A stretch of 56,933 nt of DNA from Myxococcales bacterium (GTDB lineage: Bacteria > Myxococcota > Myxococcia > Myxococcales > Myxococcaceae): contig JACPVI010000084.1 of assembly GCA_016191815.1 (NCBI GenBank), positions 1 to 56,933 on the forward strand. Reading direction: 5' to 3'. This document shows, in pieces, positions 14,919 through 17,802 of the stretch. A program made the position numbers and the translations under genes. Position 1 is the stretch's first letter, and the number at the start of each line of letters is the position of its first letter. The notes under the pieces were generated by a model. It saw only the letters and a list, made by a program, of their open reading frames with translations, ran no database searches and had not been told where the DNA came from.

Positions 14919-15218
14919 GTGTCCGCAGCGGCGTTCTCGACGGCTCTGCTTCTCCTTCTGGGTGGCGCGAAGCCAGGCGAGTACACCGAACGCAGCCTCT
15001 GCGACCTGTGGGCCGGCGCGCACTGCCACGCCACCAAGTGTCTCAAGGACGCCAAGGAGCGGTGCACCGCGGTGTCCAGCCGCTGCCGGGGCGCCACTCG
15101 GCATGTCGTCTCCAGGTCCCGGGCCGAGCGCACCGCCGCTTGCGCGAAGGCGCTGCTCCAGAGCTCTTGCGGGGGGCCGACTCCCTCGGAGTGCGCCGAC
15201 GTGACCGCGGCGTATTGA
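14919..15218 (+). CDS. Small secreted Cys-rich protein
   Basis: A 99-aa protein with a cleavable-looking signal (MSAAAFSTALLLLLGGAKPG) and a mature part with eight cysteines (residues 28, 36, 41, 49, 56, 75, 84, 92), consistent with four disulfides outside the cytoplasm. The spacing C-x7-C-x4-C-x7-C-x6-C recalls small helical Cys-rich proteins, but no family is recognised. The GTG start is supported by GGGAGG six to seven bases upstream. Its promoter/leader closely matches that of the following EF-hand protein gene, so the two may be co-regulated. Confidence 0.7.
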   Translation: MSAAAFSTALLLLLGGAKPGEYTERSLCDLWAGAHCHATKCLKDAKERCTAVSSRCRGATRHVVSRSRAERTAACAKALLQSSCGGPTPSECADVTAAY

Positions 15219-15262: not shown

Positions 15263-15289
15263 TAGAATGGGCGCGCTCCGGGAGGGCCT
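15263..15289 (+). promoter_or_regulatory. -10 box and leader, second of a matching pair
   Basis: TAGAAT at 15263-15268, then a leader containing CTCCGGGAGG directly before the ATG at 15290. It mirrors the leader at 14891-14918 almost base for base, with the same distance to the start codon. A TTGGAC at 15237-15242 is a possible -35, but its 20-bp spacing is long. Confidence 0.4.
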
Positions 15290-16621
15290 ATGAGCGTCCG
15301 TTCTGTTTCTCTTCCCCCGTGGGGGTTTTCGCAGCGGCTCGCCGACACCGGCGGCCGGATTCCCTTCAGCTCGGTGGACACCAACCGCAGCGGGCGGATC
15401 AGCCGGGATGAGGTGGTGAACGCGGTGCGCCTCAACTTCCCCGGGCTGACCGACCTCGAGTCCTCGGCGATCGGCCAGAAGGCGTTCGACGCCTCCACTC
15501 GCGGCACCTACGTCGATGCGAAGAGCTGGCCCCAGGCGGAGAGAGTCATCCTCTCCGAGGCCAGCACCACCCTCACCGACAAGGCGGCGGAGGCGCCCGG
15601 AGGATGGGCGGCGAGGCAGCAGGTGCGCACCGGGGAGCGCCCCCCTCCGGTGGTGGCGCCCCAGGCGCCCTACTACCAGCCGCGCAACGACTACTCGACC
15701 ACCGGCTACTACCCCTACCAGCAGCCGGTGCAGGACGCGCTCGCCGCGGAGACCGGCCGCGCCGCCGGCCGGACACTGCTCGGCGGCCTGAAGATGATTC
15801 CGGTGGTGGGCAACATCCTCAACGGCATCGACTTCATCCGCGACCTCGGCAAGGCCGGGGCGACCTGGCTCGATCCGACCCGCTCCTTCGGCGAGAAGCT
15901 GAAGGCCGGAACGGATCTCCTCTTCCACGGCGCGGGGATGCTCGTGCCCCAGGTGGGAGGCGCCTACGATATGGCCCAAGGCGTGGCACGGATGGGCGCG
16001 GCGGCCGCCGCCAGGTCGCAGCTCAACCAGCTCCCGCCGTTCCAGCCGGACTTCGGCGCCTATCCCCCAGCGTACCCGATGCAGTACGCGCCGCCCGCGA
16101 TGGGGCCCGGCTACGCGCCACCTCTATATGGCCCTCCGGCCTATGACCCGCTGGGGACCCAGCAGTACGGGGCTCCGCTCTACGGCCGGCAGGCCTATGG
16201 TCCTGACTACGCGCCTCCACTCTACGGCCCGCAGGCCTATCCCCCGGCGGAGGACCAGGTGGCGAAGAAGGCCGTCACCGGCGGAGCCCGCGCGGTGGTC
16301 GGCGCGCTGAAGATGATTCCGGTGGTGGGGAACGTCCTCAACGGCATCGACTTCCTCCGGGACATCGGCAAGGCAGCGGTCACCTGGCTGAACCCCTTCA
16401 AGTCCTTCGGCGAGAAGATGAAGGTCGGCGCCGACCTCTTGGCCCACGGCGCGGGGGTGTTCGTCCCGCAGATCGGCGGCGTCTACGACATGGTCCAGGG
16501 GACGGCGCGGGTCGGCAAGGCCTTCTCCGAGCACGTCGAGCAGTCGAGGTGGGCGCTTCCCGCGTACCGGTTCGACAACGGCGGCTACCCGCCGGTCTAC
16601 CCGATGCAGTACGCCTACTAG
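15290..16621 (+). CDS. EF-hand protein with duplicated hydrophobic module and Pro/Tyr-rich linker
   Basis: A 443-aa protein of no recognised family. Near the N-terminus is a canonical EF-hand loop, VDTNRSGRISRDEVV (about residues 29-43). A linker follows, then module 1 from LLGGLKMIPVVGNILNGIDF (about 160-230), a linker of repeated Tyr-Gly-Pro-Pro / Pro-Pro-Leu-Tyr-Gly units (about 245-320), and module 2 from VVGALKMIPVVGNVLNGIDF (about 335-405). The two modules are near-identical over about 70 residues and carry long glycine-spaced apolar helices, suggesting membrane insertion or a helical hairpin. There is no signal peptide. GGGAGG precedes the ATG. The downstream gene starts after 15 nt. 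The function is unknown. Confidence 0.8.
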   Translation: MSVRSVSLPPWGFSQRLADTGGRIPFSSVDTNRSGRISRDEVVNAVRLNFPGLTDLESSAIGQKAFDASTRGTYVDAKSWPQAERVILSEASTTLTDKAAEAPGGWAARQQVRTGERPPPVVAPQAPYYQPRNDYSTTGYYPYQQPVQDALAAETGRAAGRTLLGGLKMIPVVGNILNGIDFIRDLGKAGATWLDPTRSFGEKLKAGTDLLFHGAGMLVPQVGGAYDMAQGVARMGAAAAARSQLNQLPPFQPDFGAYPPAYPMQYAPPAMGPGYAPPLYGPPAYDPLGTQQYGAPLYGRQAYGPDYAPPLYGPQAYPPAEDQVAKKAVTGGARAVVGALKMIPVVGNVLNGIDFLRDIGKAAVTWLNPFKSFGEKMKVGADLLAHGAGVFVPQIGGVYDMVQGTARVGKAFSEHVEQSRWALPAYRFDNGGYPPVYPMQYAY

Positions 16622-16636
16622 AGGAGCGGGGAACAG

Positions 16637-17122
16637 ATGGATCCGATCGTGAGCGAGCTGCTCGGCGGCCCAAAGTCCGCCGAGCCGGCCGAGCGCCTGG
16701 CCTGGATGAAGAAGGTCCACTTCGCCTGCGTGAGCGCGCAGGAGGCGTCGATCAAGCGCATCGGCGAGCCCTTGAAGAAAGCGGTGGACCTGCTCGGCAA
16801 GAGCGCCTCCAGCGGCAAGGAGCTGGACGAGCAGGGCGAGGCGGAGCTGACCGGGCTGCTATTGCAGGCGCAGGGGCTGGCACTCTTTGGCTACCTGCAG
16901 GACCTCAACAAGGTGCGCAATGCGATCGCGCAGGAGGCCTCCCGCCAGCAGCCGGGCTCCGAGGAGCGGAAGAAAGCCGAGAAGCTCCAGGGCGCCTACG
17001 AGCAAGCCATCGACGGGCTGGCGCGCGCCTACGAGGGCCTGCGCTCCGGCAAGTTCGACGAGCTGAAGAAGGTGGGGCCGCTGCTCGAGCAGGCCCGGAA
17101 GACGGCGGAGAGCCTGAGGTAG
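16637..17122 (+). CDS. Helical hypothetical protein, partner of the EF-hand protein
   Basis: A 161-aa, almost entirely alpha-helical soluble protein (SVSELLGGPK-type start: MDPIVSELLGGPKSAEPAER; later EELDEQGEAELTGLLLQAQG-like charged helices; end LLEQARKTAESLR). It has no signal or membrane segment, and I do not recognise the family. It lies 15 nt after the EF-hand protein with GAGGAG and GGGG upstream of the ATG, so the two are almost certainly cotranscribed, and a chaperone- or adaptor-like role for the neighbour is one possibility. That role is inference only. Confidence 0.7.
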   Translation: MDPIVSELLGGPKSAEPAERLAWMKKVHFACVSAQEASIKRIGEPLKKAVDLLGKSASSGKELDEQGEAELTGLLLQAQGLALFGYLQDLNKVRNAIAQEASRQQPGSEERKKAEKLQGAYEQAIDGLARAYEGLRSGKFDELKKVGPLLEQARKTAESLR

Positions 17123-17230: not shown

Positions 17231-17458
17231 ATGAAGGCGATTCAGATCACGATGGACGAACGGCTCCTCGCGAGCCTGGACAATGACAGGCTGGTGAAGC
17301 GCGAGGGCCGTTCCGCGGTGTTGCGACGGTTGGTGGCCGAGTACCTGAGGCGCAGGCGGGAGGGTGAGATCAGCGAAGCGTACCAGCGCTCCTATTCGGG
17401 GCGGCCGGACAGCGAGCTCGACGGCTGGGCGGATGAAGGGGCATGGCCAAGCGATTGA
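17231..17458 (+). CDS. Ribbon-helix-helix antitoxin (MazE-like)
   Basis: A 75-aa antitoxin. The N-terminal KAIQITMDERLLASLD strand-helix and RSAVLRRLVAEYLRRRREGE helix make a ribbon-helix-helix (CopG-like) DNA-binding fold. The acidic C-terminus (SYSGRPDSELDGWADEGAWP) resembles the toxin-binding tail of MazE-type antitoxins. It overlaps the MazF gene by 16 nt. Translation appears leaderless (see the promoter at 17195-17230). Confidence 0.88.
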   Translation: MKAIQITMDERLLASLDNDRLVKREGRSAVLRRLVAEYLRRRREGEISEAYQRSYSGRPDSELDGWADEGAWPSD

Positions 17459-17802
17459 AGCGCGGTGAGATCTGGCTGCACGAGTTTCGGCCTCCAGACA
17501 AGGCACGGCCTGTGCTCGTGCTCAGCCGCACTGACGCGATCGAGGCGTTGCACACCGTCATGGTCGCGCCCATTCGCTCGCTGGTGCGTGGCCTGCCGAG
17601 CGAGGTGCTCGTCGGCCCCGACGAGGGACTCAAGAAGGTCTCCGCCATCTCGCTCGATCACGTCCACACCGTCGAGCAAGCGCATGTGCGCCGGTTCTTG
17701 GGAAGCGTGTCCGCCGAGCGGATGGCCGAGGTCTGCAAGGCGCTCGCGGTGGCCACCGGATGCGGCCCAAGCCCCTCCGACCGACGCCAGAGCCCGGCTT
17801 GA
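17443..17802 (+). CDS. mazF: MazF/PemK-family endoribonuclease toxin
   Basis: A 119-aa sequence-specific mRNA interferase of a type II toxin-antitoxin system. Hallmarks are RGEIWLHEFRPPDKARPVLV (the RGEIW start and the R-P-V-L-V strand), MVAPIRSLVRGLPSEVLVGP with the T/S-P-I-like strand, and SAISLDHVHTVEQAHV near the C-terminus. The start at 17443 lies inside the antitoxin frame, a coupled arrangement. The last 12 residues are Pro/Ser-rich and probably disordered. Confidence 0.92.
   Translation: MAKRLKRGEIWLHEFRPPDKARPVLVLSRTDAIEALHTVMVAPIRSLVRGLPSEVLVGPDEGLKKVSAISLDHVHTVEQAHVRRFLGSVSAERMAEVCKALAVATGCGPSPSDRRQSPA

What the first reader, a model, noticed from the sequence alone, without database searches (positions are those of the whole stretch)
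15290..17122. EF-hand protein with a duplicated 70-residue apolar module and a dedicated helical partner
The two modules (from LLGGLKMIPVVGNILNG and VVGALKMIPVVGNVLNG) are nearly identical and flank a Tyr/Pro/Gly repeat linker. A perfect EF-hand loop sits at the N-terminus. Long glycine-spaced apolar helices without a signal peptide are unusual and could be pore-forming, membrane-shaping or assembly-forming. The next gene, a small all-helical protein, is tightly linked. I know of no described protein with this layout.
Basis: partly seen in the sequence, partly recalled or inferred. Interest (0 to 1): 0.6.

Follow-up and report, generated by a model that had tools for sequence, protein, structure and literature searches.

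The report
Duplicated apolar-helix protein with helical partner
A myxobacterial gene pair encodes a signal-less protein carrying two copies of a water-avoiding helical module and a small helical companion; the pairing is conserved in distant relatives and looks like a secreted, membrane-active protein travelling with its own chaperone, but nobody has tested what it does.

Summary
Window 15290-16621 encodes a 443-aa protein without signal peptide: one canonical EF-hand loop, two 85-residue apolar Gly/Pro-spaced modules (70% identical, not 'nearly identical'), and Tyr/Pro/Gly linkers. A 161-aa helical protein follows 15 nt later. The pairing is real and old: a profile of the partner finds 12 full-length members in 8 of 195 Myxococcota genomes, and 11 of the 12 lie directly behind a signal-less protein with an apolar-helix segment. 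The rest of the large protein varies: EF-hand here, a NolX/HrpF-type translocator-like repeat domain in the closest homologue, LysM domains or only disorder elsewhere. No Pfam, NCBIfam, PHROGs, PADLOC or PDB family covers the module or partner. Best reading (about 0.45): a Sec-independent exported, membrane-inserting protein, possibly a type III substrate, with a dedicated chaperone that shields its apolar modules. All eight genomes have a type III export apparatus (but so does most of the phylum) and none has T6SS TssC. The partner is not a TPR (class II) chaperone; its model is a generic helical bundle. Function, membrane insertion, calcium binding and the module-partner contact are untested.

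The parts
15290..16621 (+). module protein, 443 aa, no signal peptide, no cysteine
   Evidence: ORF with GGAGG at 15281-15285; homologues in two further Myxococcaceae genomes
15377..15412 (+). EF-hand loop DTNRSGRISRDE (residues 30-41); a degenerate second loop may follow near residues 66-80
   Evidence: pattern match, 0.15% of shuffles; Pfam EF-hand_5 E=0.0046, 16.8 bits against cut-off 25.9
15761..16015 (+). apolar helical module, copy 1 (residues 158-242)
   Evidence: profile match E=6.3e-42; repeat D1
16016..16279 (+). Tyr/Pro/Gly-rich linker with three YAPPLYGPQAY-like repeats
   Evidence: 21 Pro and 12 Tyr in residues 243-330; repeat D2
16031..16090 (+). tail motif copy 1, LPPFQPDFGAYPPAYPMQYA
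   Evidence: repeat D3; a similar LPPYQFNGGGYPMQYP motif follows each module in the G018 homologue
16280..16534 (+). apolar helical module, copy 2 (residues 331-415)
   Evidence: profile match E=7.1e-43; four helices in the model, block pLDDT about 44-68
16556..16618 (+). C-terminal tail motif copy 2, LPAYRFDNGGYPPVYPMQYAY
   Evidence: repeat D3
16637..17122 (+). partner, 161 aa, all-helical, no signal peptide, candidate chaperone or co-subunit
   Evidence: AGGAG at 16622-16626; AlphaFold2 pLDDT 86.8, pTM 0.73, helices 3-10, 17-32, 37-59, 65-102, 109-136, 143-160; 12 family members

Best explanation
The pair is an exported, membrane-active protein and its dedicated cytoplasmic chaperone. The large protein is made without a signal peptide. 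Its apolar modules would aggregate or hit the cell's own membrane if free, so the small helical partner, encoded 15 nt downstream, is proposed to wrap them until the protein is handed to a Sec-independent exporter, most plausibly the type III-like apparatus these bacteria carry. Outside, the modules insert into or coat a membrane, while the variable N-terminal part (EF-hand, NolX/HrpF-like repeats, LysM) anchors or positions the protein. Shown by computation: the two genes, the duplication, no signal peptide, the conserved pairing, the constant partner next to variable accessory domains, the HrpF/NolX kinship of one homologue's N-terminus, presence of a type III export apparatus and absence of T6SS TssC. 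Inferred: co-transcription, chaperone role, contact between module and partner, export route, membrane insertion, target.
For: Gene pair conserved: 12 full-length partner homologues in 8 genomes, 11 directly behind a signal-less protein with apolar helices. Background control: against 207 neighbouring genes the window-type partner profile ranks distant partners above unrelated genes, and the module profile ranks apolar-module proteins, including three of the upstream genes, first. The partner stays constant while the N-terminal domains change: LysM passes its Pfam cut-off in two loci; the N-terminus of the G018 homologue is 37% identical over 220 residues (E=3e-37) to a protein that passes Pfam cut-offs for NolX (35.1 against 26.1) and T3SS_HrpK1 'translocator protein HrpF' (35.1 against 30.9). 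In the same bacterial family other NolX-like proteins with an apolar N-terminus are followed at once by 156-178-aa TPR genes, a translocator-plus-chaperone layout. FHIPEP and YscJ/FliF families are present in all eight pair-bearing genomes; TssC (VipB) in none. Known type III translocators are hydrophobic and depend on a single chaperone (PMC3443056, abstract).
Against: Type III genes occur in 161 of 195 genomes, so 8 of 8 proves little, and no type III gene was seen beside any pair. The window protein's own N-terminus shows no detectable kinship to the NolX-like domain. The partner is not TPR and has no significant fold match. The modules are only moderately apolar. One partner locus (G194:C331) lacks an adjacent module gene. 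The upstream proteins of the second paralogue group are not demonstrably homologous to the module by profile alignment (3%; one of them 22%).
Confidence: 0.45

Rival explanations
1. Intracellular membrane or structural assembly: the apolar modules bind the inner face of a membrane (monotopic hairpins) or pack into an oligomer, and the partner is a stable co-subunit, not a transient chaperone. No export is involved.
For: No signal peptide in any of 11 large proteins; moderate hydrophobicity typical of in-plane helices; vertical-looking inheritance of the LysM-type pair behind clpS-clpA in the deep families; Tyr/Pro/Gly linkers suit an assembly.
Against: LysM and HrpF/NolX-like domains are usually found on exported proteins; strong variation of accessory domains; patchy presence within the window's own family (3 genomes).
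Confidence: 0.27
2. Membrane-depolarising toxin with a cytoplasmic immunity protein: the apolar modules form the pore, the neighbour neutralises it.
For: Adjacent small gene downstream, as in many toxin-immunity pairs; glycine-spaced apolar toxins exist (EsxX, PMC12744356; CDI ionophores, PMC11630599; abstracts).
Against: No toxin or pretoxin family hit in Pfam or NCBIfam and no PADLOC match; no variable C-terminal toxin cassette and no orphan immunity array seen; the partner is one conserved family over deep branches, unlike fast-diversifying immunity proteins; no T6SS TssC.
Confidence: 0.15
3. The pair is a lineage-specific low-complexity protein whose neighbour is only loosely related; the apparent pairing in distant genomes reflects chance matches between helical proteins.
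For: Partner identity to deep homologues is only 12-23%; helical bundles attract spurious matches.
Against: Full-length matches in short ORFs of the right size (E 2.5e-4 to 8e-35 with a profile not containing them), 11 of 12 with the same kind of upstream gene; rank test against 207 genes.
Confidence: 0.07

Closest known systems
HrpF/NolX/HrpK type III translocators (Pfam PF05819, PF16937)
   Same: No signal peptide, apolar segments, EF-like repeat N-terminus in the G018 homologue (by way of a protein that passes both Pfam cut-offs)
   Different: The window protein's own N-terminus does not match; two duplicated 85-residue modules with Tyr/Pro/Gly linkers; no type III genes seen beside it; partner family not described for HrpF/NolX
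T3SS class II chaperones (SycD/LcrH/IpgC, TPR)
   Same: About 160-170 aa, all-helical, encoded next to an apolar protein without signal peptide
   Different: No TPR hit; predicted helices up to 38 residues long instead of TPR pairs
Apolar pretoxin linkers of polymorphic toxins
   Same: IPxxG-type apolar hairpin segments (a resemblance recalled from memory)
   Different: No Pfam hit to pretoxin families and no toxin domain behind the module
Apolar-module regions of large signal-less myxobacterial proteins
   Same: Profile kinship of the module (hhalign probability 44-88%)
   Different: Single copy at a C-terminal or internal position; no partner-family gene seen next to those examined
LysM proteins behind clpS-clpA in deep Myxococcota families (L033, L058)
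   Same: Same partner family directly downstream, apolar PGxG-type module, no signal peptide
   Different: LysM domains in place of the EF-hand; single module; different locus

Membership tests
HrpF/NolX type III translocator | NolX or HrpK1/HrpF domain above the Pfam cut-off | tested here: not met
   P0001 has no hit and hhalign with the NolX-like profile gives 0.2%; the G018 homologue is only transitively related
HrpF/NolX type III translocator | Secreted by a type III system and inserts in the target membrane | not testable with these tools
   needs an export assay and a liposome assay
HrpF/NolX type III translocator | Encoded in a genome with a type III export apparatus | tested here: met
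   FHIPEP and YscJ_FliF in all eight pair-bearing genomes; weak, as 161 of 195 genomes have FHIPEP
T3SS class II (TPR) chaperone | Tetratricopeptide repeats | tested here: not met
   no TPR hit for the three close partners or the four distant ones scanned; predicted long helices
EF-hand calcium-binding protein | Canonical 12-residue loop with a helix on each side, scoring above the family cut-off | tested here: inconclusive
   loop pattern met, Pfam scores 13.6-16.8 bits against cut-offs 25-30; calcium binding not testable here
Polymorphic toxin with pretoxin linker | Pretoxin domain plus a C-terminal toxin domain | tested here: not met
   no such Pfam or NCBIfam hit; protein ends in YPMQYAY
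T6SS effector | Genome carries a T6SS sheath (TssC/VipB) | tested here: not met
   no VipB match in any of the eight genomes; E. coli control positive
Known anti-phage defence system | PADLOC model match | tested here: not met

The most novel reading that the evidence does not exclude
A previously undescribed class of secreted membrane-active proteins of Myxococcota, defined by duplicable apolar modules and a new non-TPR helical chaperone family, that serve as substrates or translocon substitutes of the needleless type III-like apparatus whose cargo is unknown.
Probability: 0.2. Interest if true: 0.8.

Novelty: new variant of a known kind. Interest (0 to 1): 0.5.

Why it matters
Myxococcus xanthus kills prey with a Tad-like pilus working with a 'needleless' type III apparatus that lacks secretin, needle and translocon and whose effectors are not identified (PMC12075869). 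A conserved pair of a Sec-independent apolar protein and a small helical partner, one member of which carries a HrpF/NolX-type domain, is a concrete candidate cargo-chaperone set to test against that machine. Even if the route is different, the pair defines two protein families absent from Pfam, NCBIfam, PHROGs and PADLOC, with a gene order that predicts a physical complex.

Tried and rejected
Paralogues in the own genome: none for the protein itself, only a weak apolar-module relative on contig 54. Chance hit G139 for the partner (histidine-kinase frame) rejected. Genome-contig scan: only the two MAG homologues already found; viral contigs, plasmids and phages: nothing. PDB by sequence: nothing significant for module, partner or P0001. 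Fusion model of module 2 plus partner, read through the in-frame TAG purely as a modelling device: pLDDT 65, pTM 0.59, too weak to judge a complex; its fold matches are noise. Partner model: no Foldseek match at E<=0.001 in PDB or viral models; VIA-align Z up to 9.6 to assorted helical bundles, within the range the tool warns is common for such folds. Stop-codon readthrough fusing the two genes: considered because both are in one frame, dropped because the spacing is 2 nt in G005. Weak Pfam/NCBIfam hits DUF575, NhaB, BspR, Spore_III_AE: below cut-offs, attributed to apolar composition. T6SS route: dropped. Weak partner hits in six further genomes are partial matches in much longer frames and were not counted.

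Full report
What is there. The window (about 69% G+C) carries two ORFs in tandem on the + strand: 15290-16621 (443 aa) and 16637-17122 (161 aa), each with a purine-rich ribosome-binding site, separated by 15 nt. The large protein has no cysteine and no signal peptide. It reads as: EF-hand loop (residues 30-41), Pro/Tyr-rich stretch, apolar module 1 (158-242), Tyr/Pro/Gly linker, module 2 (331-415), and a YPMQYA tail. The two modules are 70% identical over 70 residues and align with a score of 301 against 27 +/- 5 for shuffles. At DNA level dS is 0.52 and dN 0.21 between the copies, so the protein sequence has been kept while silent sites drifted.

The duplication is dynamic. The best homologue, in another Myxococcaceae genome (G018 contig 188, which is MAG SSF41), also has two modules, but there they are 91% identical to each other (dS 0.11) and only 46-51% identical to the window's. 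The copies within each protein resemble each other more than they resemble their counterparts, so duplication happened independently or the copies are homogenised. A third genome (G005, MAG-72) has one module only. Two copies are therefore an option and not a requirement.

The partner is the constant part. All three close homologues have the 161-165-aa partner directly downstream. A profile of these three gave a marginal hit (E=0.0026) in a distant genome, G192, where the gene starts on the last base of a signal-less LysM protein with an 'IPGIG' apolar segment. Adding that sequence and searching again gave full-length matches in all five genomes of deep families f29-f31, several with two copies (E 2.5e-4 to 8e-35 for sequences not in the profile). 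The final count is 12 members in 8 of 195 genomes. Upstream of 11 of the 12, on the same strand and from a slight overlap to about 160 nt away, lies a signal-less protein with apolar helical segments flanked by disordered or coiled-coil sequence. The exception is G194 contig 331, where the partner follows clpA directly.

Control. Because helical and apolar sequences attract false matches, I aligned the profiles with 207 genes called in the same loci. The window-type partner profile placed known partners first (the deep ones at 85%, 72%, 19%, 7.5% and 2.6% probability) before any unrelated gene (1.7% and below). The module profile placed first only apolar-module proteins, including three of the genes upstream of deep partners. 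Direct profile comparisons: partner window-type against LysM-type 90%, second paralogue group against LysM-type 98%; module window-type against LysM-type 46%; the apolar segments of the second paralogue group are not demonstrably related. So homology of the partners is well supported; that of the apolar segments is likely for the LysM group and open for the other.

What the accessory parts say. The LysM domains pass Pfam cut-offs. The N-terminal half of the G018 homologue scores only 15.0 bits against NolX, but it is 37% identical over 220 residues (E=3e-37) to a G005 protein that passes the cut-offs of NolX and of T3SS_HrpK1/HrpF translocator. The window's own EF-hand region shows no such kinship. 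Elsewhere in the same bacterial family, NolX-like proteins with an apolar N-terminus are followed by 156-178-aa TPR genes, the size and layout of class II chaperones beside translocators. The window pair has the same logic with a different, non-TPR partner.

Export machinery. All eight pair-bearing genomes have FHIPEP and YscJ/FliF genes, but FHIPEP is in 161 of 195 genomes, so this is permissive evidence only. None has the T6SS sheath protein VipB/TssC while the E. coli control does. A published analysis describes the M. xanthus type III apparatus as lacking secretin, needle and translocon, with effectors not yet identified (PMC12075869).

Structure. The partner alone folds confidently as a helical bundle with long helices (pLDDT 86.8, pTM 0.73) but matches nothing specific. 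A modelling fusion of module 2 and partner, obtained by reading the single in-frame TAG as a residue, gives four helices for the module at low confidence and cannot decide on a complex.

Judgement. The strongest new fact is the deep conservation of the pair with a constant partner and changing accessory domains. That pattern fits a chaperone or co-subunit that recognises the apolar part. I favour an exported, membrane-active protein with its chaperone (0.45) over an intracellular assembly (0.27) and a toxin-immunity pair (0.15). It works like a translocator-chaperone pair, but membership in HrpF/NolX and in class II chaperones was tested and not met.

Noticed in passing
L103 7272-9421 (-), L104 6759-9023 (+), L084 889-3159 (+), L087 874-2667 (-): Several genomes of the window's family carry a NolX/HrpF-like protein with an apolar N-terminal segment directly followed by a 156-178-aa TPR gene, the layout of a type III translocator with its class II chaperone; the M. 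xanthus apparatus is described as lacking a translocon (PMC12075869).
   Followed up: partly
L081 3880-4740 and 4668-6665 (own genome contig 54), L034 3447-6932, L036 6371-7183, L012 4829-8146, L022, L023: Large signal-less proteins share an Ala/Lys/Pro-rich disordered N-terminus with a short D-x-F motif (DDFAPL, DSFAKA, DGFERG, DGFAPV, DGFDSK, DEFSAN, DQFAAP); it could be a common export or sorting signal.
   Followed up: no
L033 4744-9647, L057 6900-10956, L058 3749-8083, L056 5416-8594: In the deep families the pair (or the lone partner in L056) sits directly behind clpS-clpA; an endonuclease III-like gene lies nearby in L033, L055 and L057. Whether this is function or mere synteny is unknown.
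   Followed up: no
window 17231-17802: A ribbon-helix-helix antitoxin-like gene and a PemK/MazF toxin gene lie immediately behind the partner gene; not seen at the homologous loci.
   Followed up: no
window 16619-16637: The large ORF's TAG stop and the partner's ATG are in the same frame with no other stop between; not conserved in G005 (2-nt spacer), so a readthrough fusion is unlikely.
   Followed up: yes
L010 6777-7169 (-): A 130-aa protein without family hits follows the partner in G018; its size would suit a class I-type chaperone, but it is absent at the other close loci.
   Followed up: partly
window 14919-15218: Small Cys-rich ORF with a possible signal peptide just upstream of the pair, no family hit.
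   Followed up: no
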